Of a stretch of 64,000 nt of DNA, positions 9,470-28,303 are shown one piece after another. The stretch's first letter is position 1; every line of letters begins with the position of its first letter. Below the pieces are notes generated by a model. That model saw only the letters and a list, made by a program, of their open reading frames with translations. It had not been told where the DNA came from and searched no databases. Both the position numbers and the translations under genes were made by a program. The stretch spans positions 248,001 to 312,000 of the forward strand of contig NZ_CP039649.1 of NCBI RefSeq assembly GCF_004923315.1, written 5' to 3'. This stretch comes from Azospirillum sp. TSA2s. Lineage in GTDB: Bacteria > Pseudomonadota > Alphaproteobacteria > Azospirillales > Azospirillaceae.

Positions 9470-12400
9470 ATGAGCGCGAGGCAACGGATCGTCCGTGAAC
9501 GCCGGCAATACAACCAGCTCGCCGCCGACCAGACGCTGGAGGACTACGCGCTCCGCTACACCGCGGAACGGGCGCGGCGCTGGAGCGCGTGGCGGGTCGC
9601 CAACACCGCGCTCGGCGCCATCTCCTTCCTGGCCTGCGAGGCGCTGGGCGCCGCCGTTACCCTGACCTACGGCTTCGAGAACGCCATGGCCGCCATCCTG
9701 GCGGTGGCGGTTCTCAGCATCCTGGTCGGACTGCCGATCACCTATCACGCGGCGAAGGCCGGGGTGGACATCGACCTGCTGGCCCGCGGCGCCGGCTTCG
9801 GCTATCTCGGCTCGACCATCACCTCGCTGGTCTACGCCTCCTTCACCTTCATCCTGTTCTCGATCGAGGCCAGCATCATGTCGGCCGGGCTGACCATGGT
9901 GCTGGGCATCCCGGCCTCGGTCGCCCATGTCATCAGTTCGCTGGCGGTGATCCCCATCGCCGTCTACGGCATCCGCTTCATCAGCCGCATGCAATGGGCG
10001 ACGCAGCCGGTGTGGATCCTGCTGCAATGCGTGCCGCTGGCCTATTTCTTCCTGCTCGACCGCGAAACCCTGGCGCAATGGACCTCGCTGCCCGGCGTCT
10101 ACGCCCCCGACGGCGGGCTGTCGCTGCTGCCTTTCGGCATGGCCGCCTCCGTCCTGCTCTCGCTGCTGCCGCAGATCGGCGAGCAGGTCGACTATCTGCG
10201 CTTCCTGCCCTCGCAGTCCCGCATCGGCAAGGTGCGCTGGTGGACGGCGCTGCTGGCCGGCGGACCGGGCTGGGTGGTGATCGGCAGCCTGAAGCTGGCG
10301 GCGGGGTCGCTGCTGGCCTTCCTCGCCATCAAGCACGGGCTGGCGGTGGAGGATGCGGTGCAGCCCAACAGCATGTACCACATGGCCTTTCTCGACGTGT
10401 TCGGCTCCCCCGTCGCGGCGCTGGCGCTGACCGGCATCTTCGTCGTCGTCTGCCAGATGAAGATCAACGTCACCAACGCCTATGCCGGCTCCATCGCCTG
10501 GTCGAACTTCTTCTCCCGCCTGACCCGCAGCCACCCCGGCCGCGTCGTCTGGCTGGTGTTCAACGTGCTGCTGGCCCTGCTGCTGATGGAGATCGGCATC
10601 CTCGGCGTGATCGAGAGCATCCTTGGCCTCTACGCCAACGTTGCGGTCGGCTGGCTGGGCGCCGTCGCCGCCGATCTGGCGGTCAACAAGCCTCTGGGCT
10701 TCAGCCCGCCGGGGATCGAGTTCAAGCGCGCCCATCTCTACGACATCAACCCGGTCGGCACCGGCGCCATGGGCCTGTCGGTTCTGTGCTCGACTACCGC
10801 CTTCTTCGGCCTTCTCGGTCCGGTGGCCCAGGCGCTGGCCCCCTTCATCGGGCTGGTCGTCGCCTTCGCCGCCGCCCCGCTGATCGCCTGGAGAACCGGG
10901 GGCCGCTATTACATCGCCCGCAAGTCCACTCAACTGCCCGGCGAGGGCGCCACCGTCCGCTGTTCGATCTGCGAGAACCAGTTCGAGCGGCCGGACATGG
11001 CCTTCTGCCCGGCCTACGACGCGCCGATCTGCTCGCTCTGCTGCACGCTGGAGGCGCGCTGCCACGATCTGTGCAAGACCGACAGCCGCTTCGCCGACCA
11101 GATCGCCCACAGCCTGCAACGGGTCCTGCCCAAGCGCATGGCTGCCGGGGTCCACACCCGCACCGGCCATTTCATCGGGGTGATGACGCTGTTCTCGCTG
11201 GTGCTGGGCGGGGTGCTGCTGGTCATCGACTTCCAGTACGCCAATGCCGACGCGGCGGAGCGGGCGGCGATCCACACCGCGCTGGTCACCGTCTTCGTCT
11301 GCCTGTTCATCCTGTCCGGCGTCGCCGCCTGGCTCTTGGTGCTGGCCCATGAAAGCCGCCGCAAGGCGGAGGAGGAGACCGGCCGCCAGACCGCCATGCT
11401 GATGGACGAGATCGCCGCCCACGAACGCACCGACGCGGCCCTCCAGAAGGCCAAGGAGGTGGCGGAGGCCGCCAACGCCGCCAAGAGCCGCTACATCATC
11501 GGCGTCAGCCACGAAATCCGCGCGCCGCTCAACGCCATCTCCGGCTATGCCCAGCTTCTGGAGAGCAACAGCACCCAGCGTCCGCAGGACGCCGTCCGAG
11601 TCATCCGCCGCAGCGCGGAACATCTGTCGAACCTGATCGACGGGCTGCTCGACATCTCCAAGATCGAATCGGGCCTGCGCCGGCTCAGCCGCGACAAGGT
11701 GCAGCTGATCGACTTTCTCGACCAGCTGGCCGACATGTTCCGCATCCAGGCCTCGGCCAAGGGGCTTGAGTTCCGCTATGCCCGCGTGCCGCACCTGCCG
11801 GTCTGGGTCCACACCGACAGCAAGATCCTGCGCCAGATCCTGATCAACCTGCTGTCGAACGCGGTGAAATACACCGAGAGCGGCCATGTCGCCCTGACCG
11901 TCCGCTACCGCAGCCAGATCGCCGAGTTCGAGATCGCCGACAGCGGCATCGGCATCCGCGCCGAGGATCTCGACCGCGTCTTCGAACCGTTCGAGCGCGG
12001 GCGGGGGGCGGCGGTGCGGGCGGTGGCCGGCACCGGACTCGGCCTGACCATCACGCGGGTGCTGACCCGGATCATGGGCGGCGACATCGCCGTGCGCAGC
12101 GAAGCCGGGCGGGGCAGCGTGTTCACCGTCCGCCTGCTGCTGTCGGAGGCCATGCACCGGCCGGGCGAGCAGGTGGAGCGCCGCGCCATCACCGGCTATG
12201 CCGGGCCGCAGATCACCATCCTGCTGGCCGACGACGACCGCGACCATCTGGCGCTGATGACCGACATCCTGCGCCCGCTGGGGTTCGTGCTGTTCACCGC
12301 GTCGGACGCCTCCTCCTGCCTGGAACTGGCCGCGCAGTGCAAGCCGGACGTCGCCATGCTCGACATCTCGATGCCCGGTGAGAGCGGCTGGGATCTGGCG

Positions 12401-12939
12401 GAGGAGCTGCGCCGCCAGTTCGCCGACCGCATCCGCATCATCATGGTCTCCGCCAACGCCTACGAGGCGCAGGGGCCGGGCGACGGCCGGGCGCCGCATG
12501 ACGCCTTCGTCGCCAAGCCCATCGAGATCCACGCGCTGCTCGACCGCTTGCAGGCGCTGACCGGCCTGGAATGGCTCCATGCGGCGGAAAAGCCGGCGGA
12601 ACCGCTTGCCCCGCCGCCCGCGCCGGCCGATCAAACCCCGGACCCGTCCAATCAAACGCCGTCCAATCAAACGCCGGAGTCGGCGCTGCGTCATCTCGAC
12701 GACCTGCGCCAGCTTGGCCGGATCGGCTATATTCGCGGGATCGAGGCCAAGCTGCGCGAGATCGAGGCGGAGGATGCCGCCGCCCTGCCTTTCGTCGAGC
12801 GGCTGCGAACGCTGGTGCGCGCCTTCGACCTGAAGGGCTATATGCGTGCGGTGGAAGAGGCGTCGGCACAGCGAGACGCCGCGCGGAGCGACAATGATCG
12901 GGCGGAAGATGATCTGGAAGAAGACGGGGCCGTGACGGG

Positions 12940-12943
<4 letters not shown>
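9470..12943 (+). CDS. NCS1 permease-fused hybrid sensor histidine kinase
   Basis: A 1157-residue inner-membrane protein. Residues 40-490 resemble an NCS1-type purine/cytosine permease with about twelve membrane segments (LEDYALRYTAERARRWSAWR, GFGYLGSTITSLVYASFTF). Next is a cysteine cluster (residues 498-536: CSIC, FCPAYDAPIC, CC, C, C), two more membrane helices, HisKA (His about 681 in VSHEIRAPLN), HATPase (NLLSNAVKY, GTGLGLT) and a receiver (Asp about 965). A tandem SNQTP linker and a conserved helical tail close it. It is a transporter-as-sensor design like CbrA, but with an NCS1 rather than an SLC5 module. The response regulator gene overlaps by four bases (ATGA). A ligand such as a nucleobase, allantoin or hydantoin is inference. 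Confidence 0.9.
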
Positions 12944-13872
<929 letters not shown>

Positions 13873-14521: not shown

Positions 14522-15136
14522 ATGTTCCCGGTCGGATTCCAGACCATCGACGGACGGATGTCACCAAACCCTGCGCAAACTGCCTCCACCCCGTCGCCAT
14601 TCCGTTGCGTCGTGTTTTCGGTTGCCGGCCGGGCGCTGGCGCTGCCGGTGGAGTCCGTGCGGCGTTTTTTGCCGTTGCCGCGTCTCGACCGGCTGCCGAC
14701 GGCGCCGCTGCCGGTGGAGGGCGTTTTCCGCTATCAGGGGGAGGTGGTTCCGGTCCTGCGCCTGGACGTGCTGCTGGATCTGGCCGGGGAGGGCGCCGGG
14801 GCCGCCGAGCCGAACCTCTATTCGCCGCTGCTCCTCGTCACCTGGCAGGGGCGGCCGGCGGCGCTGCTGGCCGACCGGGTCCATGGCGATACCGCGGTCG
14901 ATCCCGCCGAGCGCACCCCCTCCGACCCGTCGCTGACCTTCAACGGCTGTGCCGCCGGCGCCTTTCCGGACCGGATGACCGGCCGCGGCGGCACCGTGAC
15001 CCTGCTGGATCCCGACCGGCTGCTCAGCGAGGCGGAAGGCCGGCTGCTCGACGCCTTCCGCGCCGTGGCGGAGCGCAGGCTGGCGCAGTGGCAGCACGCT
15101 CAGGACCCGGCCTCTTCCGCGGGCGGTGCCGCATGA
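14522..15136 (+). CDS. CheW-like adaptor, first gene of the chemosensory operon
   Basis: A CheW-domain scaffold protein that would link chemoreceptors to the CheA kinase (WspB-like position). The CheW fold is visible in FRCVVFSVAGRALALPVESV, PLPVEGVFRYQGEVVPVLRL and LLLVTWQGRPAALLADRVHG. The protein has 204 residues from the ATG at 14522; an alternative ATG at 14558 (MSPNPAQ) would also keep the whole domain, and neither has a strong Shine-Dalgarno. It overlaps the cheR start by four bases. The operon appears to begin here, about 150 bases from the divergent MaoC gene. Confidence 0.85.
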   Translation: MFPVGFQTIDGRMSPNPAQTASTPSPFRCVVFSVAGRALALPVESVRRFLPLPRLDRLPTAPLPVEGVFRYQGEVVPVLRLDVLLDLAGEGAGAAEPNLYSPLLLVTWQGRPAALLADRVHGDTAVDPAERTPSDPSLTFNGCAAGAFPDRMTGRGGTVTLLDPDRLLSEAEGRLLDAFRAVAERRLAQWQHAQDPASSAGGAA

Positions 15137-16548
15137 TGCCGAACGCCGTCGCCGCCGGGATCGAGAAGATCCGCCGCGATCCGAATTTCCTGCGCCTGAA
15201 GGCGATGGTGATCGACGCCACCGGGCTCGCCTATTATGCCGACAAGGATGCCGCCTTCGCCGAGCGGATCAACCGCCGGCTGCCCTTCGGCCGCGTCACC
15301 ACGGTCGGCGGCTATCTCGCCGCGCTGGAGGCGGAGGGGCCGACCGGCGCCGAATATCAGGGACTCATCAACGAGCTGGCGGTGGGGGAGACCTTCTTCT
15401 TCCGCTACATCGAGCAGTTCGACGCGCTGCGCGCCGTCGCCATCCCCGAATGCCTGCGCCGCAACCAATCGAGCCGGCTTCTGCGGATCTGGAGCGCCGG
15501 CTGTTCCATCGGGCCGGAGGCCTACACGCTCGAAATCCTGCTGAAGCAGCATTTCGCCGCCCAGCTGGAAGGCTGGCAGGTCCACATCGTCGGCACCGAC
15601 ATCAACGGCGCCTTCCTGGAACAGGCGCGGCGCGGTGCCTATGGCGACTGGGCGGTGCGCGGCCTGTCGCCGGAAACGCTGGAGGCCTGCTTCGACCGCC
15701 AGGACAAGCTGTGGTCGGTGAAGCCGAAATTCCGGCAATGGACCAGCTTCATGCCCTTCAACCTCGTGGATGGAGCGATCCCCTCCTATCCGCACGGGAT
15801 CGGGCATTTCGACATCATCCTGTGCCGCAACGTCATGATCTATTTCGACGAGGCGACGCGGCACCGGCTGCTGGGCAACCTGCACAAGGCGCTGGCCGAC
15901 GGCGGCTGGCTGGTGGTCGGCCATGCCGAGGCCGGTCCGCAGATGAACGAGCTGTTCATTCCGGTCTCGGTCCCCGGCGCCACCCTCTACCGCAAGCAGG
16001 CCGAAGCGGCGGCCCCGGCAGCGGCGGTTCGCAGCCCGTCCCCCGGCCCGGCAGCGCCGGCGCCGGCCCCTGTGCTCAAGTCCCGCCGTGCGACCGGACC
16101 GGCGCCGGAAGCCGCGCCCGCTCCGCGCGCCCGCAAGTCCGCGCCGGCGGCGACGCCTCCCGCAGCACCGACCCCGCCGGAGCCCGCCGAAACCAACGAG
16201 CGCTCGACCGTTCTGGAAGCCTGTCTCGCCCGGGTGGAGGCGAGCCGGCTCGACCCCGGCGCCCATTACCAGCTGGGACTGGTGGAGGAGGAACTGGGCG
16301 TCGGCGATCCGGTGGCGGCCTTCAAGCGCGCGCTGTATCTCGACCCGCGATTCGTTCTGGCCGACTATCATCTGGCGCTGGCCTATTGGCGGCGCGGCCG
16401 GCTGCTCCCGGCGCAGCGCCATTTCCGCAATGCGCGCGAGGCGCTGGAAAGCCGTCCCGACGACGAGGCGGTGGCGGAGGGCGGCGGCCTGACCGTCCAG
16501 GAACTGCGCGGCATGCTGGACCTCTGGCTGACCGGTGAGGAGGGCTGA
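15133..16548 (+). CDS. CheR-type methyltransferase with C-terminal TPR region
   Basis: A 471-residue S-adenosylmethionine-dependent methyltransferase that would methylate receptor glutamates. The helical CheR N-domain is at residues 10-80, followed by VGETFFFRYIEQFDALR and the SAM site WSAGCSIGPEAYTLEILLK. Then come GTDINGAFLEQARRGAYGDWAVRG and FDIILCRNVMIYFD, all CheR landmarks. The SAM loop reads SIGPEAY rather than the common STGEEPY. A Pro/Ala-rich linker (about 290-360) leads to a TPR-like tail (HYQLGLVEEELG, YHLALAYWRRGRL), as in WspC and FrzF. It overlaps its neighbours on both sides, indicating tight translational coupling. Confidence 0.92.
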   Translation: MMPNAVAAGIEKIRRDPNFLRLKAMVIDATGLAYYADKDAAFAERINRRLPFGRVTTVGGYLAALEAEGPTGAEYQGLINELAVGETFFFRYIEQFDALRAVAIPECLRRNQSSRLLRIWSAGCSIGPEAYTLEILLKQHFAAQLEGWQVHIVGTDINGAFLEQARRGAYGDWAVRGLSPETLEACFDRQDKLWSVKPKFRQWTSFMPFNLVDGAIPSYPHGIGHFDIILCRNVMIYFDEATRHRLLGNLHKALADGGWLVVGHAEAGPQMNELFIPVSVPGATLYRKQAEAAAPAAAVRSPSPGPAAPAPAPVLKSRRATGPAPEAAPAPRARKSAPAATPPAAPTPPEPAETNERSTVLEACLARVEASRLDPGAHYQLGLVEEELGVGDPVAAFKRALYLDPRFVLADYHLALAYWRRGRLLPAQRHFRNAREALESRPDDEAVAEGGGLTVQELRGMLDLWLTGEEG

Positions 16549-17249
16549 TGGACGACACGCTTGCCGGCGCCGGGGCAGGGGCGGTGACGGGTGCCGCACC
16601 GCTGATCGCCGCCCTCGAAAGCGCCTCCCCCGACCGCGCCGCCGCCCGTGCGGCGATCGACTGGGATGAGGTGCACAGGAAGCTGGCCCGCCGCAACGCC
16701 GACCTGGAGGCGACCTTCGCCGGCCAAGGCCCCTGGGCCGACGCCGTGCTGGCCCGCCGGGCGGAGGATCTGGCCGAAATCCCGCAACTCCACGGGGAGG
16801 AGAGCGTCGGCATCCCGATGCTGGTCGCCCGCGGGGCCGAAACGCACTATGGGCTGGAGCTGCGCCATCTCGGCCATATCGTGCCGATGCCGCGGCTGGC
16901 CCGCGTGCCGGGGGCACCGCCCACCGTCCTGGGGGTGATCGCCGTCGCCGGCCGGGTGATGCGGCTGTTCGACCTCGACCGGCTGTGCAGCGGTCCGTCG
17001 GCCAGTGTATCCGCCGCCCTGCTGTCCAGGACCGATGCCGGGACCGACCCGTCCGGCTACGCCATCGTGCTGCGCACCGGCACCGGCCGTCCGGCGGCCT
17101 TGCGCGTGCGGGATGTGGAGCGGGTGGCCGACATCGTGCCGCCGCGCGGCTCCGCCCCGGTGGAGGCCGGGCCGCTGGTCAGGGCCATCGCCGCCGACCG
17201 CATGGCGATCCTCGACATGGTGGCACTGCTCGACCTCGTGAAGACCTGA
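16548..17249 (+). CDS. Second CheW-like adaptor (WspD-like)
   Basis: A 233-residue CheW-domain protein. The first 90 residues form a helical extension (WDEVHRKLARRNADLEATFA) often found in CheW proteins that work with CheR-TPR, as in WspD. The CheW domain is at residues 95-230 (YGLELRHLGHIVPMPRLARV, GVIAVAGRVMRLFDLDRLC, RDVERVADIVPP). It begins one base inside the cheR stop codon. Two CheW proteins flanking a CheR is the Wsp arrangement and marks an alternative-cellular-function system rather than a flagellar one. Confidence 0.88.
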   Translation: MDDTLAGAGAGAVTGAAPLIAALESASPDRAAARAAIDWDEVHRKLARRNADLEATFAGQGPWADAVLARRAEDLAEIPQLHGEESVGIPMLVARGAETHYGLELRHLGHIVPMPRLARVPGAPPTVLGVIAVAGRVMRLFDLDRLCSGPSASVSAALLSRTDAGTDPSGYAIVLRTGTGRPAALRVRDVERVADIVPPRGSAPVEAGPLVRAIAADRMAILDMVALLDLVKT

Positions 17250-17295
17250 AACCGACCGATCCACCTGAAGAGCCGTCCGGGGCTGGAGTCCAAGA

Positions 17296-18984
17296 ATGAA
17301 CATGAAAGTCGCGCACAAGCTGGTCCTGGGATTCGGCGTGGTCTGTGTCCTGACGGCGCTGCTGGCGCTCTATCAGATGTCGCGCTTCTCCGACGCGCTG
17401 GACGTCATCATGGCGGTGTCGACCTACGACAACGAAGCCGCCAAAATGGTGACGGACGTCGGCAACATGCAGGCGGAACTGCGCAGCACGCGCGAGACGG
17501 CGCTGAACGCCGTGTCCATCGCCAATGCCGAAGGGCGGGTCGCCGAAATCCCGGCCCTGCTGGCGCCGGTGCGCCGCCATTACGACGAGGTCGGCGTCCA
17601 GCTGCGCGACCGGCTGGGCCAGCTGCGGGCGATGGTGGCTGAACGGTCCTCGACCGGCGTGACCGACAGCCGCCGCCGGGGTTGGGTCGAACTGGACACC
17701 TCCGTCAACGAGATGAGCCGCGCCATCACCCTGGTCGGCGACGAGGCGCGGACCATCTACACCATGCTGGAGCGCAACCAGATCGCCGACGCGCTGCAGC
17801 GCCGTCAGCGGGTGGACGAACTGCGCAAGAACATGGAGGCGCGCATCGCCCAGGCCCAGACCGCCATCGACCATCTGACCACGGCCGGCCGCAGCGAAAT
17901 CCGGTCGATCTACAACTCCGCCATCCAATCGTCGGTCATCGCGCTGGTCGTCGTCTTCCTGATCGCGGTGGCGGTCGCCTATCTGATCGGCAGCTCGATC
18001 ACCCGGCGGCTCGGCCGCGCCATCGACTTCGTCACCAAGGTCGGCCACGGCGACCTGACCCAGGAGATCGCCATCGCCGGCAAGGACGAGCTGGCGATCC
18101 TCGGCCAGCATCTGAACGAGATGGCCGGCCGGCTGAAGTCGATGGCCCGCACCACCCGCGAGACGGCGGAGAGCGTCCACGCCGCCACCGCCCAGATCCG
18201 CGCCTCGACCCAGCAGCAGTCGGCCAGCGTCGCCGAACAGCTGGCGGCGGTGGAGCAGACCACGGCGACGCTGTCGGAGATCACCGAATCCGGCGCCCAG
18301 ATCAACCGCCGCGCCCAGGACGTCTCGCACGGCGCCCAGACGGTGGCGGCCTCCAGCCATTCCGGCATGAAGGCGGTGGACGACACCATCCAGGCGATGG
18401 ACGCCATCCGCGAACAGGCCGAGGCGGTGGCCGAGAACATCGTCATGCTGTCCGAGCGCACCCAGGCGATCGGCGAGATCATCGTGACGGTCAACGACAT
18501 CGCCGAGCGCTGCCACCTGCTGGCGCTGAACGCCGCCATCGAGGCGGCGGCGGCCGGCGAACATGGCCGTACCTTCTCCATCGTTGCGGGCGAGATCAAG
18601 AGCCTCGCCGACCAGTCGAAGGAGGCGACCGCCCAAGTCCGCTCCAACCTGTCGGAGATCCAGCACGGCATCAACGCCTCGGTCATGCTGACGGAGGAGG
18701 CGGTGAAGCGCGTCGCCGCCGGCAAGCGCCAGACCGACGCCACCCAATCGACCATCCGCACCATGGCGGAGAACATCCAGGAGAGCGTGCTGGCCTTCCA
18801 GCAGATCGTCGCCGGCACCAACCAGCAGCAGATCGGCCTGGAGCAGGTGATCCAGGCGCTGCAGAACATCCGCGAGGCCAGCAGCCAGACGGCGGCCGGC
18901 ACCCGCCAGCTGGAAGGCGCCGCCGCCAACCTGAACAACCTCGGCCAGGGTCTGGTCGAGGCGGTGCGGAACTACCGGGTGTGA
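17296..18984 (+). CDS. Methyl-accepting chemotaxis protein of the Wsp-like operon
   Basis: A 562-residue chemoreceptor. An N-terminal membrane helix (LVLGFGVVCVLTALLALYQM) is followed by a periplasmic four-helix-bundle-type sensor (about 35-200). A second membrane helix (VIALVVVFLIAVAVAYLIGS), a HAMP domain (RAIDFVTKVGHGDLTQEIAI) and a cytoplasmic signalling hairpin complete it. The tip reads IAERCHLLALNAAIEAAAAG, close to the canonical sequence, with RCHLL where other receptors have QTNLL. It starts with ATG 46 bases after the second cheW. No CheR-tethering pentapeptide is present; the C-terminus is VRNYRV. A 161-bp palindromic repeat separates it from cheA. Confidence 0.93.
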   Translation: MNMKVAHKLVLGFGVVCVLTALLALYQMSRFSDALDVIMAVSTYDNEAAKMVTDVGNMQAELRSTRETALNAVSIANAEGRVAEIPALLAPVRRHYDEVGVQLRDRLGQLRAMVAERSSTGVTDSRRRGWVELDTSVNEMSRAITLVGDEARTIYTMLERNQIADALQRRQRVDELRKNMEARIAQAQTAIDHLTTAGRSEIRSIYNSAIQSSVIALVVVFLIAVAVAYLIGSSITRRLGRAIDFVTKVGHGDLTQEIAIAGKDELAILGQHLNEMAGRLKSMARTTRETAESVHAATAQIRASTQQQSASVAEQLAAVEQTTATLSEITESGAQINRRAQDVSHGAQTVAASSHSGMKAVDDTIQAMDAIREQAEAVAENIVMLSERTQAIGEIIVTVNDIAERCHLLALNAAIEAAAAGEHGRTFSIVAGEIKSLADQSKEATAQVRSNLSEIQHGINASVMLTEEAVKRVAAGKRQTDATQSTIRTMAENIQESVLAFQQIVAGTNQQQIGLEQVIQALQNIREASSQTAAGTRQLEGAAANLNNLGQGLVEAVRNYRV

Positions 18985-19032
18985 TGCGGATGACGAGGTT
19001 TTCCGAAGCAGCGTCCTCTCCCCCCGGAAAAT

Positions 19033-19193
19033 GCCCTCTCCCGCCCCGGGAGAGGGAGGGGACCCACGCCGTAGGCGTGGGGAGGGTGAGGGGTAGGGCA
19101 AGAATTCAGAACCGTATGGTTCCTTGGATGACCCCTCACCCTTCCCATGCTCCGCATGGGCCCCTTCCCTCTCCCGGGGCGGGAGAGGGAGCT
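19033..19193. repeat. Palindromic repeat family Y, copy 1, inside the chemosensory operon
   Basis: Two long inverted arms begin and end with CCCTCTCCCGCCCCGGGAGA and each carries a further hairpin: CCCACGCC/GGCGTGGG on the left and CCCATGC/GCATGGG on the right. A small central hairpin GAACC/GGTTC lies between them. Copy 2 (33060-33216) is in the same orientation. The unit is transcribed between mcp and cheA, ending about 15 bases before the cheA ATG, so the cheA Shine-Dalgarno (GCGGAG) follows the hairpin directly. Confidence 0.85.
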
Positions 19194-19207
19194 TTGCGGA
19201 GCCCCTG

Positions 19208-21454
19208 ATGGACATCCGCCAGCGCCTGCTCGCCGCCTTCGATCTGGAGCACAAGGACCATCTCGCCGCGATCCGCAACGCGCTCCGCGATGCGGAGGCG
19301 ACGGGCGACGCGCCGGATCTCGTCGACATCCACCGGCGCGCCCACAGCCTGAAGGGCGCCGCCCGCGCCGTCGACCTGCCGGAGGTGGAGGCGATCTCCC
19401 ACCGGCTGGAAGCCGCCTTCATCGCCGTGCAGAAGGGCGAGATCCCGCTCGACGCCGCCAATGTCGGCGTGTTCCGCCGCGCGCTCGACGCCATCGAGGA
19501 TCTGGTCGCCTGGTCGCTCCAGGGCGGCGGGGCGGTGGAGACGGCCGGCGTGCTCGCCGACCTCGACGCGCTGGCCGCTGGCGGCAACCATGGCCGTTCT
19601 CCGGCTCCCGCTCCGGCATCCCCCGCCCGTACCGCCGGGAACCGGCCACCCCGCCAGCGCGAGCGCACCGTCGACGCCGATTCCGCCGCCCTGGTCCGCA
19701 TCGCCGCCCAAGGTCTGGAGCGTCTGTCGGAAACCGCATCGGCCCTGCTGCCGGAGGTGGAGGCGCAGGCGGGGCTCGGCGAGCAGCTCCGGGCGATGCG
19801 GCAGGAATGGCGGGCGCTCGACCGCGCATGGCGTCATCTGCGCGTGCAGCTCGGCCGCGGCGCCCGGCTGGAGGCCCGGCCGGAGGATGGAACCGACGCG
19901 CTCGACGGCCGTGGCGCGCTGCCCGCCCTGATGGCTTTCGAGCGCCGCTTCCGGTCGCTGGGCGGCGCGCTCGACAGCGCGCACCGCAGCCATGACCGGC
20001 TGCTGTGGTCGATGCGGCGCTGGGGCGGCGGCTTCCAGCAGGACATGCGGCGCCTGCGCATGCTGCCGGCCGAAAACCAGCTGAGCGGCCTCGGCCGCAT
20101 GGTCCGCGACATCAGCCGGGCCGAGGGCAAGGAGGTCGAGGTCGACGTCCGCGGCCTGGAGGTGGAGGCCGACCGCAACGTCCTGCAGCGGTTGAAGGAC
20201 CCCATCCTCCACATCGCCCGCAACGCCATCAGCCACGGCATCGAAACGCCGGCGGAACGGCTGGCGCTGGGCAAGCGGCCGGCGGCGCGCGTCACCATCG
20301 CCGCCTCGGTGGAGGGGGCGCGCCTGCTCCTGCGCATCGAGGATGACGGTCGTGGACTGGACCGCGCGGCGATCCTGCGCAAGGCGGCCGAACGCGGCCT
20401 GATCGACGCCGACGAGCTGTCCGGCGCCGAAGAGATACCGCTGGAGCGGCTGACGGAGTTCCTGTTCCATCCCGGCTTCTCCACCGCCTCGCGCACCACC
20501 GAACTGGCCGGGCGCGGCATGGGCCTCCCCATCGCCCGGCGGGAGGTGGAGCGGCTGCAGGGCAACCTGACCATCGCCGACCGGCCGGAGGGCGGCACCG
20601 CCGTCACCATCGAGGTGCCGCTCAGCCTGCTCAGCCAGCGTCTGGTCTTCGTCGCCGTGCAGGATCAGATCCTGGCGATCCCGTCCGCCGATGTGGTCCG
20701 GCTGCGCACCGCCACCGCCGAATCGCTGTTCTCCGGCGTCGGCACCCCGATGATCCGCATCGGCGAGGAGGAGACGCCCGTCACCTCGCTGGCCGCCCTG
20801 CTGGGCATGGAGGCGCCGGTGGTGCCCACCGCCGAACGCTCGCTGGCCCTGGTGGTCGTCCGCGCGGCCGACCGGCGGCTGGCGCTGGCGGTCGACCGCT
20901 TCGTCGCGACGCGCGAGACGGTGGTGACGGCGGCGGAGGAGACCGGGCTCGACAGCGGCCGCTATCTCGGCACCGTGCTGATGGACGATGGCGGGCCGGC
21001 GCTGGTGCTGAACATCTCCGGCCTGATGCCGCTGCCCGGCAGCGTCCTGCCGCCCCCGGCACGACCTGCGGAAGAGGTTACCCCTGCCCGGGCGCATATC
21101 CTGGTCGTCGATGACAGCATCACCACCCGCACGCTGGAAAAGAGCATCCTCGAAGCCCATGGTTATCGGGTGACGCTGTGCGTGGATGGGCGCGAGGCCC
21201 TGGAGCGCCTTTCGGAAGGGATGGAGGTTGGCCTGATCATCAGCGACGTCGAGATGCCCCGGATGGACGGTTTCGCCCTGCTGCAGGCGGTGAAGGCCGA
21301 CAAGCGGCTGGAGGAGATTCCGGTGATCCTCGTCACCTCGCGCGCCAGCGACGAGGACCGCGAGCGCGGCTTGCGGCTGGGGGCGGACGCCTACATCGTC
21401 AAGACGCGGTTCGACCAGAACGAGCTTCTGGCCGGCATCCGGCGGCTGCTGTGA
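19208..21454 (+). CDS. CheA-type hybrid histidine kinase with receiver (WspE-like)
   Basis: A 748-residue chemosensory kinase. The HPt/P1 domain has phospho-His46 in RRAHSLKGAARAV. No P2 docking domain is apparent; a Pro/Arg-rich linker leads to the dimerisation and ATPase region (N-box HIARNAISHGIETP, G1 DDGRGLD, G2 GRGMGLP). A CheW-like P5 domain follows (LVFVAVQDQILAIPSADVV), then a C-terminal receiver (ILVVDDSITTRTLE, DVEMPRMDG, Lys in YIVKTRF). The fused receiver is the WspE/FrzE arrangement. The ATG at 19208 has GCGGAG upstream. The stop overlaps the cheB start (GTGA). Confidence 0.93.
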   Translation: MDIRQRLLAAFDLEHKDHLAAIRNALRDAEATGDAPDLVDIHRRAHSLKGAARAVDLPEVEAISHRLEAAFIAVQKGEIPLDAANVGVFRRALDAIEDLVAWSLQGGGAVETAGVLADLDALAAGGNHGRSPAPAPASPARTAGNRPPRQRERTVDADSAALVRIAAQGLERLSETASALLPEVEAQAGLGEQLRAMRQEWRALDRAWRHLRVQLGRGARLEARPEDGTDALDGRGALPALMAFERRFRSLGGALDSAHRSHDRLLWSMRRWGGGFQQDMRRLRMLPAENQLSGLGRMVRDISRAEGKEVEVDVRGLEVEADRNVLQRLKDPILHIARNAISHGIETPAERLALGKRPAARVTIAASVEGARLLLRIEDDGRGLDRAAILRKAAERGLIDADELSGAEEIPLERLTEFLFHPGFSTASRTTELAGRGMGLPIARREVERLQGNLTIADRPEGGTAVTIEVPLSLLSQRLVFVAVQDQILAIPSADVVRLRTATAESLFSGVGTPMIRIGEEETPVTSLAALLGMEAPVVPTAERSLALVVVRAADRRLALAVDRFVATRETVVTAAEETGLDSGRYLGTVLMDDGGPALVLNISGLMPLPGSVLPPPARPAEEVTPARAHILVVDDSITTRTLEKSILEAHGYRVTLCVDGREALERLSEGMEVGLIISDVEMPRMDGFALLQAVKADKRLEEIPVILVTSRASDEDRERGLRLGADAYIVKTRFDQNELLAGIRRLL

Positions 21455-22596
21455 GCGGGGCGGCGCACTCCGGACCTCCCGCCGTCGGAACCCCCACCGT
21501 CGGACACCGTCGCATCCGTGTGCTGGTGGTGGAGGACAGCCCGGTCATCCAGCAGCTTCTCAGCCACGTCATCGGCGCCGACCCTCGGCTGGAGGTGGCG
21601 GGCATCGCCTCCAGCGGCGAGCAGGCGCTGCGCATGATCGAGAAGAACGCCCCCGACGTGGTGTCGCTCGACATCCGCCTGCCGGGCATCGACGGCTTCG
21701 AGGTGACCAGCCGCATCATGCGGCAGAATCCGCTGCCGATCGTGGTGGTGGCGTCCGATGTGCGCGACCTCGACATCCCGATGCGGGCTCTGCAGGCCGG
21801 CGCCCTGGCGGTGGTGGAAAAGCCGGGCAGCATGGCGCGCGCCGACTACCAGACGGTGGCGCACCATCTCTGCACCCAGCTGGTCATCATGAGCCAGGTG
21901 AAGGTCATCCGCCACCGCATCACCGCGCGGGCCGCCCGTTCTTCCAGCGTCCCCGGCGAAACCCCATCGCCGGACGGCCGCCTGCCCGAGGCGGCGGTGA
22001 CGGCCGACGGCCGCATCCGCCGCTTCCGCGGGCTGGGCCTCGTCGCCTCCACCGGCGGGCCGGCGGCGCTGGCGAAAGTCCTGAAGGAGCTGCCGGCCGC
22101 CTTTCCGCTGCCGGTCTTCGTCGTCCAGCATATGGGCGCCCCCTTCATGGAGGGCTTCGCCAACTGGCTGGGCACCGTTTCCCCGCTGCCGGTGCAACTG
22201 GGCGAGGCGGGGGTGAAGCCGCGGCCCGGCACGGTTTATGTGGCGCCGGGCGACCGGCACATGCTGGTGGACAACGGCGGCATCCGCCTGTCCGGCGACC
22301 CGATGGTGTGCGGCCAGCGCCCGTCGGGCGAGGTGCTGTTCCAGTCGATGGCGCGCGCCTATGGCGCCTCCGGCATCGGCGTGCTGCTGACCGGCATGGG
22401 AGAGGATGGAGCGAGGGGACTGGTGGACATGTATCGGGCGGGGGCCTACACGATTGCCGAACACGCCTCCACGGCGGTGATCCACAGCATGCCGGGCACC
22501 GCCGTGCGCCTGGGCGGCGCCGTGGAGGAACTGCCTCTCGACCGGGTGGCCGGACGGCTGCTGCAACTGACCTCCGACGAGAAGATGGCGCCATGA
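21451..22596 (+). CDS. CheB-type receptor methylesterase (WspF-like)
   Basis: A 381-residue protein-glutamate methylesterase that would reset the receptor. The receiver has Asp74 in VVSLDIRLPGIDG. The C-terminal methylesterase carries the catalytic triad: Ser200 in VASTGGPAAL, His227 in VVQHMGAPF, Asp319 in GMGEDGARGL. It starts with GTG at 21451, overlapping the cheA stop codon. The domain linker (about 150-190) is Arg/Pro-rich. Paired with the CheR-TPR, it gives the operon a full adaptation system. Confidence 0.93.
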   Translation: MSGAAHSGPPAVGTPTVGHRRIRVLVVEDSPVIQQLLSHVIGADPRLEVAGIASSGEQALRMIEKNAPDVVSLDIRLPGIDGFEVTSRIMRQNPLPIVVVASDVRDLDIPMRALQAGALAVVEKPGSMARADYQTVAHHLCTQLVIMSQVKVIRHRITARAARSSSVPGETPSPDGRLPEAAVTADGRIRRFRGLGLVASTGGPAALAKVLKELPAAFPLPVFVVQHMGAPFMEGFANWLGTVSPLPVQLGEAGVKPRPGTVYVAPGDRHMLVDNGGIRLSGDPMVCGQRPSGEVLFQSMARAYGASGIGVLLTGMGEDGARGLVDMYRAGAYTIAEHASTAVIHSMPGTAVRLGGAVEELPLDRVAGRLLQLTSDEKMAP

Positions 22597-23360
22597 ACGG
22601 ACTCCGCAGCCTGGTGGTCATGGGTTCCCAGACGCAGGGGCTTCTGCTGAAGCTTCTGCTGGAGGAACGCGGCGTCGAGACCGTCTGCGTCGACGGCGTG
22701 GAACCGGCCCTGGCCGAGATCGCCGGCAATCCGCAGGATCTGCTGATCGTCGAGGGCGAGCTTGCCCGCCCCACCGGCCTCGCCGACCTGCGCGCGCGCA
22801 GCGACGCCGCCGTCATGGTGCTCGGCCGCGGCGAGGGGGAGCACGACCCCTCCGACCCCAAGGCGCTGGTGGTGGAGGCCTGCGCGCTGCTGGAGCGGCG
22901 CAGCGCACCGCCGACCGTGCCGGAGATCTTCCGCCGCGCCCATATCCTGATCGTCGACGACAGCGCGACCTACCGCGAGTTCCTGCGCGCCGAACTGGAG
23001 CAGGAGGGCTGCACCGTCACCGCCGCCCGCAATGCCGACGAGGCGGTGGCGGCGCTGGCCGGCGGCGGGCTCGACTGCGTCATCCTCGACCTCGTGATGC
23101 CGGGCACCAGCGGCACCCAGCTCTGCGAACGATTCGACAGGTTCCGGCGCCAGCGCGGCCTGTTCTTCCAAATCGTCATCCTGACCAGCCAGGACGACGA
23201 GGAACAACTGATGATCAGTTTGAACGCCGGTGCCGACGATTTCGTCGGCAAGGCGCAGGAGATGGATGTCCTGAAGACCCGGCTGATGGCGCTTCTGCGT
23301 CGGAAATACTTCGTGGAGGATCATCTGATGCGGCGACCTCGGCCAGCACCTTCCGCATAG
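22593..23360 (+). CDS. Tandem receiver protein without output domain (REC-REC)
   Basis: A 255-residue protein at the position where Wsp operons encode WspR. The first receiver (3-105) is degenerate: the acceptor position reads LIVEGEL (Glu54 in place of Asp) and the acidic pair is missing. The second (116-245) is intact: ILIVDDSATYRE, Asp166 in VILDLVMPG, Thr in ILTS and Lys in DFVGKAQ. It ends RRKYFVEDHLMRRPRPAPSA. In related proteins the RRKYF-E segment leads into a kinase or GGDEF domain; here it stops. It overlaps cheB by four bases. The output must be through protein contact or the next gene's kinase; that is inference. Confidence 0.88.
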   Translation: MNGLRSLVVMGSQTQGLLLKLLLEERGVETVCVDGVEPALAEIAGNPQDLLIVEGELARPTGLADLRARSDAAVMVLGRGEGEHDPSDPKALVVEACALLERRSAPPTVPEIFRRAHILIVDDSATYREFLRAELEQEGCTVTAARNADEAVAALAGGGLDCVILDLVMPGTSGTQLCERFDRFRRQRGLFFQIVILTSQDDEEQLMISLNAGADDFVGKAQEMDVLKTRLMALLRRKYFVEDHLMRRPRPAPSA

Positions 23361-23380
23361 GAAGGGAGTAGAGCCATCGT

Positions 23381-25138
23381 GTGATTTCGGAAGCCGCTTT
23401 GTCCGTTTATTCTCTGCGGGATTTTCGAAACTGTCCGACGGTCTATCCGGTGCCGGTGCCGATTACGATGGCGATCAGCCTCCAGCCGTTCCACGACACT
23501 CCGATCCCCGCCCCGATCTCCGGCGACACCGATGTGAGAGACTCCGACGCGATGCACCGATCTTCGGCCACCCCAATGTCTCCGACCGATCTGCGCTATC
23601 GCGAGTGTCTCGACAACGCACGGCGCGTCTGCGCGGCCGGGACGGTGCCGACCATGCTGGTGATCGGCGGGCCGGAGATGGCCGCCGTCCGCTGCAACGA
23701 GGCGCTGGCCTCCCTGCTCAACCATCCGCGCGCCGCCACCCGCGACGAGAGCGGGCCGACCCTGCTGCCCGGCGGCTGGCCGGCGGTGGCCGACGCGCTG
23801 CGCCCGCTCTACGGGGTAGGAGGCGCCGACGGCCCTGCCACGCCGCCCGACGGCGCCGCGCTGCAGTTGCCGACCGAACCGCCGCTGAGCCTGCGCGCCA
23901 CGCCGCTGCTGGTCGACGGCCGCGTGGTCGGGGTGCTGGCGACGGCGACGCTGGACGGCGCCATCGCGAAGCTGGAGGAGGCGATGCGGGCGGAAGTGGC
24001 GCGCACCACGGCGGCGCGCTCCCGCTTCCTCGCCTCGGCCAGCCACGACCTGCGCCAGCCCTTCCAGGCGATGCGCCTGTTCCTCGACGCGCTGACCACC
24101 CAGGTGGAGGGCAACGCGCGGGCGACCCGCACCGCCGGCATGCTGGCCAACGCGATGACGGCGGGCGAGCAGCTGCTGAACGCCCTGCTCGACATCTCGA
24201 CGCTGGATGCCGGCACGGTGGAGGCCGACCTGCAGCCGGTGTCGCTCGACGCGCTTCTGCAATCGCTGGCCGATGAATTCCGTCCCCAGGCGGAGGAGAA
24301 GGGGCTGCGCCTGCGCGTCCATCTGCCCTGTCGGGCATTCACCCGCAGCGACCCGATCCTGCTCGGCCGCATCGTCCGCAACCTGCTGGCCAACGCCATC
24401 CGCTACACCCAGCGCGGCGGCATCCTGCTGGGATTGCGCAAGCGCGACGGGCACTGGCGGATCGAGGTGTGGGACACCGGCTTCGGCATTCCGCAGGACA
24501 AGCTGGACGTCATCTTCGACGAGTTCCACCAGCTGACCAACCCGGCCCGCGACCCGACGCGCGGTCTCGGCCTCGGCCTCGCCATCGTGCGGCGCCTGTC
24601 GGTTCTGCTGAGCGCGCCCATCGACGTGCGGTCGCGCTCCGGCCGCGGCTCGGTCTTCGCCGTCACCGTCGACCGCCTGGAGGGGGAGGAGGCGCTCGCC
24701 GACACCCAGTCCGCGACGGCGTCGGCCGATCAGGCGGCGGCAGTCCCGTTGGACGGCATGCGCATCCTGGTGGTGGACGACGACAGCATGGTGCTGTCCG
24801 GCCTGCTGCTGACCCTGGAAAGCTGGGGCTGCGCCTTCGTCTCCGCATCCAACATGCGCGAGGTCTTCGCCGCGGTCGATGGGCTGGAGGGTCCGCCCGA
24901 CGCCATCCTGACCGACCTGCGCCTGCCGGGAAAGGTCTCCGGCTTCGACGTGATCGACCGTGTGCGCAAGCTGTTCAAGGCCGACATCCCGGCGGTGGTC
25001 CTGACCGGCGAGACGGCGCCCGAATCCCTGCTGGAGGGCCAGCGCCGCGGCTGCGCCTTCCTGCACAAACCGCTCCACCCCGGGGAGTTGCGCCGCGTGC
25101 TGGAGGAGGTCAGGCGGGACGGGACGGCGGGCTGCTGA
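23381..25138 (+). CDS. PAS-type hybrid histidine kinase, last gene of the chemosensory operon
   Basis: A 585-residue soluble kinase. A PAS-like domain spans about residues 75-195 (MLVIGGPEMAAVRCNEALAS). HisKA has His222 in SASHDLRQPFQAMRLFLDAL, the DLRQP variant typical of NahK/HnoS-like kinases. HATPase (VRNLLANAIRY, GFGIP, GLGLGLAI) and a C-terminal receiver (ILVVDDDSMVL, ILTDLRLPG, FLHKPLHP) complete it. It starts 20 bases after the REC-REC gene; the GTG at 23381 has AAGGGAGTAG upstream, and ATG 23468 is an alternative. The Rhodospirillum centenum Che3 cluster also includes a separate hybrid kinase, so a phosphorelay with the REC-REC protein is plausible. Confidence 0.9.
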   Translation: MISEAALSVYSLRDFRNCPTVYPVPVPITMAISLQPFHDTPIPAPISGDTDVRDSDAMHRSSATPMSPTDLRYRECLDNARRVCAAGTVPTMLVIGGPEMAAVRCNEALASLLNHPRAATRDESGPTLLPGGWPAVADALRPLYGVGGADGPATPPDGAALQLPTEPPLSLRATPLLVDGRVVGVLATATLDGAIAKLEEAMRAEVARTTAARSRFLASASHDLRQPFQAMRLFLDALTTQVEGNARATRTAGMLANAMTAGEQLLNALLDISTLDAGTVEADLQPVSLDALLQSLADEFRPQAEEKGLRLRVHLPCRAFTRSDPILLGRIVRNLLANAIRYTQRGGILLGLRKRDGHWRIEVWDTGFGIPQDKLDVIFDEFHQLTNPARDPTRGLGLGLAIVRRLSVLLSAPIDVRSRSGRGSVFAVTVDRLEGEEALADTQSATASADQAAAVPLDGMRILVVDDDSMVLSGLLLTLESWGCAFVSASNMREVFAAVDGLEGPPDAILTDLRLPGKVSGFDVIDRVRKLFKADIPAVVLTGETAPESLLEGQRRGCAFLHKPLHPGELRRVLEEVRRDGTAGC

Positions 25139-25160: not shown

Positions 25161-26219
25161 TCAATCCCTGGGCGGGCTCTGCAGGTACAGCACCAGCAGC
25201 CGCACCAGGCTTTCCAGCGCGTCGGCATGGATGCGCTCGTAGCCGTGCGAGGCGTCGATGCCGAAGCAGACCAGTGCGGTGCGGATGTCGTTGCCGGCCT
25301 CGATGGCCGATGCGCTGTCGCAGCGGTAATAGCGGAAGACGTCGCGCTGGTGCGGGATGTTCTGCGCTTGGCACAGCGCGATCAGCGAATGGGTCAGCGC
25401 CATGTCGAAGGGGCCGGTGCTGTCGGCCATGGCGATGGTGACGCCGAATTCGCTGCTGTTCTGGCCGGGGGCGGTGGTGCCGTTGTCGATGGTCACCATC
25501 TCCGCCACGTCCTGATGCAGGATCGACGAGGCGCCCGACCCGACCTCTTCGGAGATCGTGAACAGCAGGTGGCAATCGACCGGCAGGGCGGCCCCGGCAT
25601 CGACCACCGCCTTCGCCGCGCCCAGCATCACCGCCACCCCCGCCTTGTCGTCGAGATGGCGGGAGACGATGTAGCCGTTCTCCAGGAATTCCGGCTGCGG
25701 GTCGATGGCGACGATGTCGCCGATGTTGAAGCCGCGCTCCTCCAAATCCTGCCGGCTGGCGACCGGGGCATCGACGCGCAGTTCCACCTGTTGCCAGGTG
25801 ACCGGCTGGGTGTCGACCTCCTTGTTGAAGGTGTGGCCAGACGCCTTCAGCGGCAGGATGGTGCCGCGCCACGGGCCGCGGTCGGTCAGCACGGTGCAGC
25901 GCGCCCCCTCGGCGAAGCGCGACGACCAGTGGCCGATCGGCACCAGCTCCATCCGGCCATTGTCCTTCAGCATCTTCACCTGGGCGCCCAGCGTGTCGAC
26001 ATGGGCGACCAGCGCCCGGTCCGGGCTGGCCCGCACCCCCTTCAGGTCGGCGCGGATGGCGCCGCGCCGCGTCAGCTCATAGGGGATGCCGATCCGCTCC
26101 AGCTCGGCACAACACAGCCGCACCACGTCGGTGGTGTATCCGGTCGGGCTCGGCGTGGTCAGCAGCCGGTAGAGGACGTCGGTGACATAGCCCATGTCGA
26201 TGGGCAGCGGCACGGCCAT
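25161..26219 (-). CDS. M42-family peptidase of the NAGGN osmolyte operon
   Basis: A 352-residue dinuclear-metal aminopeptidase-like enzyme (M42/PepM42), the type always found with N-acetylglutaminylglutamine amide synthesis. Metal-site landmarks are ALVAHVDTLGAQV (His-Asp), RHLDDKAGVAVML (Asp), FTISEEVGSGAS (Glu-Glu base and ligand), VTIDNGT (Asp) and a late His in GIDASHGYERIHADALESL. The ATG at 26219 begins MAVPLPIDMGYV. It is the last gene of asnO-ngg-M42 and is separated from ngg by repeat copy X2. It may recycle or process the dipeptide; its exact role is not established. Confidence 0.9.
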   Translation of the reverse strand: MAVPLPIDMGYVTDVLYRLLTTPSPTGYTTDVVRLCCAELERIGIPYELTRRGAIRADLKGVRASPDRALVAHVDTLGAQVKMLKDNGRMELVPIGHWSSRFAEGARCTVLTDRGPWRGTILPLKASGHTFNKEVDTQPVTWQQVELRVDAPVASRQDLEERGFNIGDIVAIDPQPEFLENGYIVSRHLDDKAGVAVMLGAAKAVVDAGAALPVDCHLLFTISEEVGSGASSILHQDVAEMVTIDNGTTAPGQNSSEFGVTIAMADSTGPFDMALTHSLIALCQAQNIPHQRDVFRYYRCDSASAIEAGNDIRTALVCFGIDASHGYERIHADALESLVRLLVLYLQSPPRD

Positions 26220-26251
26220 GGTTGGGTTTTCCTCCTGCTGGTGCCAGCACT

Positions 26252-26423
26252 TGCCCCCACCCCAGCCCTCCCCCGCTCTCAGCGGACCTATGGTCCGCCT
26301 GCCGCGTCAGCACAAAGCATAGCTTTGTGCGAGAGCTGGGCGGGGGAGGGGGTTGGTGCTGATGCGGGAGAGCGGCGGAAGTCCCTCCCCCGCCCAGCGG
26401 GGGAGGTTAGGTGGGGGTCTAAC
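26252..26423. repeat. Palindromic repeat family X, copy 2, inside the NAGGN operon
   Basis: Same layout and orientation as copy X1. The hairpins are GCGGACC/GGTCCGC with loop TAT and GCACAAAGC/GCTTTGTGC with loop ATA, so loops differ from copy 1 while stems are identical. The right arm GGGGGAGGTTAGGTGGGGGT ends in CTAAC, and its TTAG complement is the stop codon of ngg. The repeat is transcribed between ngg and the M42 gene. Confidence 0.85.
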
Positions 26424-28191
26424 TCCCCCTCAAAGCACCCCCCCGCGTCTGGGGAAACAGCAGATCGACGAATCGTTCCGCCGTCGGCTGCGGTTCGTGG
26501 TTGGCGAGGCCCGGCCGCTCGTTCGCCTCGATGAAGACGTAGCCCGGCCGGTCGGGCGATTCGACCAGCAGGTCGAACCCCACAACCGGAATGTCCAGCG
26601 CGCGGGCGGCCACCGTCGCCACCTCCACCAGTTCCGGGTGCAGGCAGTCGGTCACGTCGTGGATCGTCCCGCCGGTGTGCAGGTTCGCCGTCTTGCGCAC
26701 CGGCAGCACCTCGCCGGCCGGCAGCACGTCGTCCAGGCTCTTGCCGGCGGCGGCGAGGCAGCGGTCGGTCTCCGCGTCCATCGGGATGTGGCTTTCCCCG
26801 CCGGTGGCGGCGGCGCGGCGGCGGCTTTGCGCCTCGATCAGTTCGCGCACGCTGTGGGTGCCGTCGCCCGTGACCTCGGCCGGGCGGCGCACCGCGGCGG
26901 CCACCACCCTCTTGTCGATGACGATGATCCGCAGATCCTGCCCTTCGCAGAACCGCTCCAGCAGCACCGTGTCGCAATGCTGGCGGGCCGCCGCGATGGC
27001 CTGCTCCATCGTCTCGGCGTCGCGCACGTCGACCGTGATGCCGCGTCCCTGCTCGCCGCGCGCCGGCTTGACCACGACGCGGCCATGCGTCGCCAGGAAT
27101 GCGGCGTTCTCCTCCGCGCTTCCCGCCACCACCTGGGCCGGCACCTTCAGCATGGCGCGCTCCAGCACGCGCCGGGTCACCGCCTTGTCGTCGCAGCGGC
27201 TCATGGCGACGGCGCTGGTCAGCTCGCTCAGCGATTCGCGGCAGACCACGCTGCGCCCGCCCCAGGTCAGGCAGAAATAGCCGGCCTCGGCATCCACCAC
27301 ATCGACGCCGATGCCGCGCCGCCGCGCCTCGTTGACGATGATGGTGGCATAGGGGTTCAGCCGCTCGCCCGGCTGCGGGCCGGTGAACAGCCGCTCGTTG
27401 ATCGGGTTCTTGGTCTTCAGCGCGAAGGTCGGAATCCGGCGGAAATTCAGCTTCTCGTACAGCGCGATGGCGTTCTCGTTGTCATGCAGCACCGACAGGT
27501 CGAGGAAAGCCCGCCCGCGCGCCTGCACATGCTCCGCCACCGTGCGGACCAGCGTCTCTCCGATCCCCGGAAACGACGCCTGCGGATCGACCGCCAGGCA
27601 CCACAGCGAGCTGCCGTTCTCCGGATCGCCATAGGCGTGGGCGTGGTCGACCGCCGTCACCGATCCGATCACCTCGCCGGTGGCATCGTCGCAGGCGACG
27701 AAATGGGTCAGCACCCGGCTGTTGCGCGACGCCACCAGGAAGGAGGAGGAGACCGGGACCATCCGCCGCCGGGCATAGATGCGCTGCACCCCCTCGGCGT
27801 CCTCGCGCGTGCGCAGCCGGCGGACGCTGTAGCCCTTCGGCCGCCGCCGCGACGGCCGGTAATCGGTCAGCCACAGGCGGAAGGTGTGGGAGGGGTCGAG
27901 GAACAGTTCCTGCGGCGCGCGCGACAGGGCGACATGCGGGTCCTGCAGATAGAACACGATGTCGCGGGTGCCCGGCGCCTCCTGCCGCAACGTCTCGATC
28001 ATGCGGTCGAGATCGTCGAAGGTGTGGGCGAAGATCAGCCGGCCCCACCCGCAATCCACCACCACGTCGGCGCGCGGCGCGTCGGCCTCCGTCTCTCCCG
28101 CCGGCGGACGGCCGGTATAGCGCCGGGTGTGGCGCAGGGTGGCGCTGGCGGCGCGTTCCAGCCGGTGCGGTTTCACGCGGGCGTAGCTCAT
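26419..28191 (-). CDS. ngg: N-acetylglutaminylglutamine synthetase
   Basis: A 590-residue two-domain enzyme that makes the NAGGN backbone from two glutamines. The N-terminal half is a GNAT acetyltransferase (VRRLRTREDAEGVQRIYARR, LWCLAVDPQASFPGIGETLV, LDLSVLHDNENAIALYEKLNF). The C-terminal half is an ATP-grasp ligase (GRVVVKPARGEQGRGITVDV, RIIVIDKRVVAAAVRRPAEV, GFDLLVESPDRPGYVFIEAN). The length and fusion match the family. It lies 112 bases after asnO. The stop codon is contributed by the edge of repeat X2. NAGGN is an osmoprotectant in Sinorhizobium, Pseudomonas and Azospirillum relatives. Confidence 0.93.
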   Translation of the reverse strand: MSYARVKPHRLERAASATLRHTRRYTGRPPAGETEADAPRADVVVDCGWGRLIFAHTFDDLDRMIETLRQEAPGTRDIVFYLQDPHVALSRAPQELFLDPSHTFRLWLTDYRPSRRRPKGYSVRRLRTREDAEGVQRIYARRRMVPVSSSFLVASRNSRVLTHFVACDDATGEVIGSVTAVDHAHAYGDPENGSSLWCLAVDPQASFPGIGETLVRTVAEHVQARGRAFLDLSVLHDNENAIALYEKLNFRRIPTFALKTKNPINERLFTGPQPGERLNPYATIIVNEARRRGIGVDVVDAEAGYFCLTWGGRSVVCRESLSELTSAVAMSRCDDKAVTRRVLERAMLKVPAQVVAGSAEENAAFLATHGRVVVKPARGEQGRGITVDVRDAETMEQAIAAARQHCDTVLLERFCEGQDLRIIVIDKRVVAAAVRRPAEVTGDGTHSVRELIEAQSRRRAAATGGESHIPMDAETDRCLAAAGKSLDDVLPAGEVLPVRKTANLHTGGTIHDVTDCLHPELVEVATVAARALDIPVVGFDLLVESPDRPGYVFIEANERPGLANHEPQPTAERFVDLLFPQTRGGALRGS

Positions 28192-28303
28192 GGAATCCCC
28201 CTGATCGTCGGATGCGGCTCCTCGCTCGGAAAACGCCGCCGGACGCGGATCGGTCCCGCGCCCGGTCGGTACCGGCGGAGCGTTCTTCGTTTGGAATGGC
28301 CGC

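What the first reader, a model, noticed from the sequence alone, without database searches (positions are those of the whole stretch)
14522..25138. Wsp-like chemosensory operon whose output is a tandem receiver and a hybrid kinase, not a GGDEF enzyme
The core (CheW, CheR-TPR, CheW, receptor, CheA-REC, CheB) matches Wsp, but WspR is replaced by a REC-REC protein with a dead first receiver and no effector, followed by a PAS hybrid kinase. Its tail stops where relatives continue into an output domain. This suggests a phosphorelay output, as for the cyst-controlling Che3 of Rhodospirillum centenum.
Basis: partly seen in the sequence, partly recalled or inferred. Interest (0 to 1): 0.7.

Follow-up and report, generated by a model that had tools for sequence, protein, structure and literature searches.

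The report
Azospirillum Che3 with severed receiver module
This is the known but unstudied Che3 signalling operon of the soil bacterium Azospirillum; comparing relatives shows that the part which in other bacteria is one protein (two receivers fused to a kinase) has here become a free double receiver, with its working site in the opposite domain from the best-studied relative, next to a different kinase.

Summary
Window 14522-25138 is an eight-gene Azospirillum operon (the che3 operon of the literature): CheW, CheR-TPR, CheW, receptor, CheA-REC, CheB, REC-REC, hybrid kinase. The order recurs in 41 of 45 genomes of the genus. Calling it Wsp-like with WspR replaced is misleading. In bacteria of several phyla the slot after CheB holds one fused protein, REC-REC-kinase; 49 of 49 intact fusions found have both receivers phosphorylatable. 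R. centenum CheS3 keeps receiver 1 and has lost receiver 2. Azospirillum did the reverse: receiver 1 is dead and partly deleted, receiver 2 is intact in 41 of 41, the kinase half is gone, and a separate NahK/ErcS-like HisKA hybrid kinase follows. The CheS3 HWE kinase and its CheY3 partner are absent from these clusters. So the output is kin to R. centenum Che3 but not built from the same parts. Most likely CheA phosphorylates receiver 2 and the free double receiver controls the neighbouring kinase in trans (inferred; 0.45). New variant of a known kind; cyst or flocculation control is untested here.

The parts
14522..15136 (+). CheW (first)
   Evidence: Pfam CheW 68 bits; conserved first gene of the operon
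15133..16548 (+). CheR methyltransferase with C-terminal TPR
   Evidence: Pfam CheR 156 bits, TPR weak; start overlaps CheW stop as ATGA
16548..17249 (+). CheW (second)
   Evidence: Pfam CheW 55 bits
17296..18984 (+). Chemoreceptor (HAMP, MCPsignal)
   Evidence: Pfam MCPsignal 107 bits
19208..21454 (+). CheA-REC: Hpt H46, HATPase, CheW, intact REC (D635, D680, T710, K732)
   Evidence: Pfam; residues; trees
21451..22596 (+). CheB (REC, methylesterase), GTGA overlap with cheA
   Evidence: Pfam CheB 181 bits
22593..23360 (+). Free double receiver, 255 aa: REC1 dead (E54; pocket, Thr, Lys and alpha4-beta5 lost), REC2 intact (D166), truncated end helix; ATGA overlap with cheB
   Evidence: dN/dS REC1 0.31, REC2 0.065
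23468..25138 (+). Hybrid kinase, 556 aa: alpha/beta (PAS-like) domain, HisKA H193 in SHDLRQP, HATPase, REC D483; NahK/ErcS-like
   Evidence: Pfam; NCBIfam NF041832 350 bits, below its 400-bit cut-off; residues conserved 41/41; start by dN/dS

Best explanation
This is the Azospirillum che3 operon, a descendant of a widespread chemoreceptor cluster in which a REC-REC-kinase is encoded right after CheB. In this lineage the kinase half was lost from that protein, leaving a free double receiver, and a separate soluble HisKA hybrid kinase took its place next door. Proposed working: receptor and CheW gate CheA autophosphorylation at H46; CheA passes phosphate to its own REC, to CheB (adaptation) and to D166 of REC2; the dead REC1 is kept as a structural or docking half; phosphorylated REC-REC binds the neighbouring hybrid kinase and sets its activity in trans, doing between two proteins what receiver 1 of CheS3 does within one. 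Shown here: gene content, the dead and live receivers, the truncation, the fused state in relatives, the constant pairing with the hybrid kinase, absence of the CheS3/CheY3 branch. Inferred: every phosphotransfer step, the trans contact, and the target of the hybrid kinase.
For: Same eight genes in 41 of 45 Azospirillum genomes. REC-REC and hybrid-kinase orthologues occur together 41/41 and are both missing in G011, G016, G041 and G023; G023 has CheS3 instead. In 49 of 49 intact fusions from several phyla both receivers are complete, and in the five CheS3 clusters the fused receiver 1 is complete: receiver 1 is alive wherever it is tied to a kinase and dead where it is free. Azospirillum REC1 is the counterpart of the fused REC1 (hhalign E 5e-12 against 5.6e-6 for REC2), and its REC2 groups with fused REC2s. 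In the CheA tree the split group is one clade (support 91) among fused ones, including a MAG (L151) with the same split and the same kinase. REC2 (dN/dS 0.065) and the kinase's REC (0.074) are the most constrained pieces. In R. centenum CheA3 phosphorylates CheS3 receiver 1 and so controls the kinase (PMC3868531).
Against: No biochemical data. Joint loss of the two genes could be loss of one operon. A 107-base gap parts the kinase gene from REC-REC, while cheB and recrec overlap. If receiver 1 was the ancestral CheA target, its death could mean that CheA no longer signals through this protein. In R. centenum CheA3 targets receiver 1, not 2.
Confidence: 0.45

Rival explanations
1. REC-REC is the terminal, CheY-like output: CheA and/or the neighbouring hybrid kinase phosphorylate REC2, and REC-REC~P acts by binding an unknown target, as CheY3 does for CheS3.
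For: No stand-alone CheY was found in the split clusters, whereas all five CheS3 clusters have one upstream; REC2 is complete and strongly constrained.
Against: REC2 belongs with the fused REC2s (CheY3 itself was not in that tree); a dead receiver would have no obvious purpose; no target is known.
Confidence: 0.3
2. The hybrid kinase is an independent two-component system that merely lies next to che3; the CheA output goes elsewhere.
For: 107-base gap with no overlap; the kinase has its own sensor-like domain and REC, and many NahK/ErcS-like paralogues in the genome.
Against: Adjacent in all 41 genomes and in a distant MAG with the same split; absent wherever the split REC-REC is absent.
Confidence: 0.15
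3. CheA signals to a distant GGDEF regulator, so the system is functionally Wsp-like.
For: Nitrospirillum clusters of a related type have a REC-PAS-GGDEF gene in this slot.
Against: None of the 41 Azospirillum clusters has one here, and fused REC-REC-kinase is the common state.
Confidence: 0.1

Closest known systems
Rhodospirillum centenum Che3 (CheA3-CheS3-CheY3)
   Same: Same core genes and order, same CheA-REC type, double receiver encoded right after CheB
   Different: CheS3 is one protein, REC(live)-REC(dead)-PAS-HWE kinase, with a FAT-GUY CheY3 upstream; here REC(dead)-REC(live) is free, the kinase is a separate HisKA hybrid and there is no CheY3 in the cluster
Clusters with REC-REC-HisKA after CheB (Magnetospirillum, Verrucomicrobia, Planctomycetes, Acidobacteria and others)
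   Same: Same core and slot; homologous double receiver
   Different: Fused kinase, both receivers complete
Pseudomonas Wsp
   Same: CheW, CheR-TPR, CheW, receptor, CheA-REC, CheB (from general knowledge)
   Different: Output WspR is REC-GGDEF; no GGDEF here, and the receptor is not the first gene
Azospirillum brasilense che3 operon (PMC8561660)
   Same: Almost certainly the orthologous operon: eight genes, two CheW; L031 from A. brasilense has it
   Different: Function reported as unknown; a part in flocculation suggested

Membership tests
R. centenum Che3/CheS3 system | Core CheW-CheR-CheW-MCP-CheA:REC-CheB | tested here: met
R. centenum Che3/CheS3 system | CheS3 = REC(live)-REC(dead)-PAS-HWE in one protein | tested here: not met
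   REC(dead)-REC(live), no kinase fused
R. centenum Che3/CheS3 system | FAT-GUY CheY3 in the cluster | tested here: not met
   CheY3 near CheA in 5 of 5 CheS3 clusters by similarity search; no such motif in the six split loci scanned and no listed one search hit beside a split cluster
R. centenum Che3/CheS3 system | Controls encystment | not testable with these tools
   needs mutants
Wsp | REC-GGDEF output (WspR) in the operon | tested here: not met
Wsp | CheA-REC, CheR-TPR, two CheW, CheB, receptor | tested here: met
Chemosensory cluster with REC-REC-kinase after CheB | Homologous double receiver directly after CheB | tested here: met
Chemosensory cluster with REC-REC-kinase after CheB | Double receiver fused to a histidine kinase | tested here: not met
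   stop at 23358-23360 in the window; free in 41 of 41
NahK/ErcS hybrid kinases | NCBIfam NF041832 above curated cut-off | tested here: not met
   best hit, 350 bits against a cut-off of 400: like it, not filed as a member

The most novel reading that the evidence does not exclude
A chemoreceptor array whose built-in kinase was cut away: the severed receiver now steers a different (NahK/ErcS-like) kinase in trans, after the phosphate-accepting site was kept in receiver 2 instead of receiver 1, so that two related lineages control kinases through opposite halves of the same module. CheA's Hpt domain may even take phosphate back from the hybrid kinase's receiver.
Probability: 0.25. Interest if true: 0.7.

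Novelty: new variant of a known kind. Interest (0 to 1): 0.5.

Why it matters
It gives a natural before-and-after experiment on how a CheA pathway reaches a second kinase: fused with two live receivers (common state), fused with receiver 1 only (R. centenum, biochemistry known), free with receiver 2 only (Azospirillum). It also gives Azospirillum Che3, whose function is listed as unknown, a specific and testable output, and warns against carrying the R. centenum model over unchanged.

Tried and rejected
Wsp relation as WspR replacement: rejected, the fused kinase is the common state. The hybrid kinase as the cut-off half of the ancestral fusion: not supported; its HisKA region is closer to NahK/ErcS-type paralogues than to the fused kinases, though no kinase tree was built. 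L151 as a second independent split: rejected; it carries the same kinase and groups with Azospirillum. Kinase start at 23381: rejected on dN/dS. Promoter or terminator between REC-REC and the kinase: none found by a consensus scan. Structure search added only that REC-REC matches tandem receivers such as 3luf and PleD and the kinase ordinary HisKA kinases. Bible et al. 2015 and Mukherjee et al. 2016 are not held.

Full report
What is there. The window lies in an Azospirillum genome (nearest record A. oryzae, 96% in REC-REC). Start-stop overlaps couple cheW-cheR-cheW, cheA-cheB and cheB-recrec; the kinase gene follows after 107 bases if it starts at ATG 23468, which is where codon-like evolution begins (dN/dS 1.2 before it, 0.41 after). 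The genome has four CheA-type Hpt/CheW clusters, matching the Che1-Che4 described for A. brasilense, and the eight-gene one with two CheW is che3 (PMC8561660). That paper says che3's function is unknown and that a part in flocculation was suggested; the primary paper is not held.

Conservation. 42 of 45 genomes of the genus have this type of CheA. In 41 of them the same eight genes follow in the same order (in two draft loci, G019 and the contig ends, only the downstream part is on the contig); G008's REC-REC and G018's kinase carry frameshifts. The exception, G023, has CheB followed by REC(live)-REC(dead)-PAS-HWE, that is CheS3. G011, G016 and G041 lack the CheA, the REC-REC and the kinase orthologue.

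What the relatives have. Within the family, G065, G053, G045 and G076 also carry CheS3. G076 is almost certainly R. centenum: a single contig of 4,355,543 bases, and its CheS3 has D54 and A191 at the published positions when the sequence is counted against PMC3868531. G047, G050 and G073 have REC-REC-HisKA-REC-Hpt; Nitrospirillum (g10) has REC-REC-kinase and a hybrid kinase upstream of CheW and a REC-PAS-GGDEF after CheB. A scan of named genomes found the order CheR-CheW-MCP-CheA:REC-CheB-REC-REC-kinase in Verrucomicrobia, Planctomycetes, Acidobacteria, Elusimicrobia, Magnetospirillum and others. Of 51 REC-REC loci without the split, 51 have both receivers complete; two of these (L129, L178) do not show the kinase in frame, because of a probable frameshift or a contig end, which leaves 49. 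The scan pattern demanded an intact REC2, so only the REC1 count is unbiased.

The reciprocal loss. CheS3 (5 of 5): REC1 E/D/D/T/K intact, REC2 lost (Ala at the phosphosite). Azospirillum (41 of 41 sequences): REC2 D/D/D/T/K intact, REC1 lost (Glu at the phosphosite in 38, Asp in 2, Asn in 1, but the pocket and Lys gone in all). REC1 is still the homologue of the fused REC1, still under selection (dN/dS 0.31) but far weaker than REC2 (0.065), and its model lacks alpha4-beta5. Receiver 1 is thus intact in every fusion and dead in every free copy seen. In R. centenum receiver 1 is the site through which CheA3 restrains the attached kinase (PMC3868531), which would explain why it could decay once the kinase was gone.

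Phylogeny. In CheA trees the split form is one clade, beside or within fused forms; support for including the MAG L151 is 91 and its branch is long. One origin of the split is the simplest reading. The HWE kinase and the FAT-GUY CheY3 (Sma0114, of the same receiver family, is described as HWE-kinase associated; PMC5898713) are both absent from the split clusters examined.

How it works. A classical phosphorelay beyond the kinase would need an Hpt partner; few stand-alone Hpt proteins are reported in Azospirillum (PMC4618731), and most of the 21 Hpt matches in this genome lie in large open frames. I therefore do not adopt 'phosphorelay' as shown.

Verdict. Observation confirmed; interpretation partly supported; a new variant of a known kind, in an operon already on the map.

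Noticed in passing
window 9470-12940 and 12940-13872: A long membrane protein with about 500 residues of transporter-like sequence (no Pfam match) and a Cys-rich patch fused to HisKA-HATPase-REC, followed by a LuxR-type regulator; it lies upstream of che3 in many near relatives and recalls the CrbS/CrbR layout.
   Followed up: partly
window 25161-30079 (- strand): NAGGN osmoprotectant genes (M42 peptidase, synthetase, amidotransferase) directly downstream of che3 in most near relatives but not in the A. brasilense group.
   Followed up: no
window about 3387-3593 (- strand): Hpt domain in an 830-residue open frame 11 kb from che3; possible hybrid kinase.
   Followed up: no
L075 (G002:C3): A second, different Che cluster in one Azospirillum: CheB followed by a multi-REC-HisKA protein.
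   Followed up: partly
L163: A Stygiobacter MAG whose CheA falls inside Magnetospirillum: transfer or binning error.
   Followed up: no
L151 9455-11920: Uncultured Rhodospirillaceae MAG with the same split and an even more decayed REC1.
   Followed up: yes
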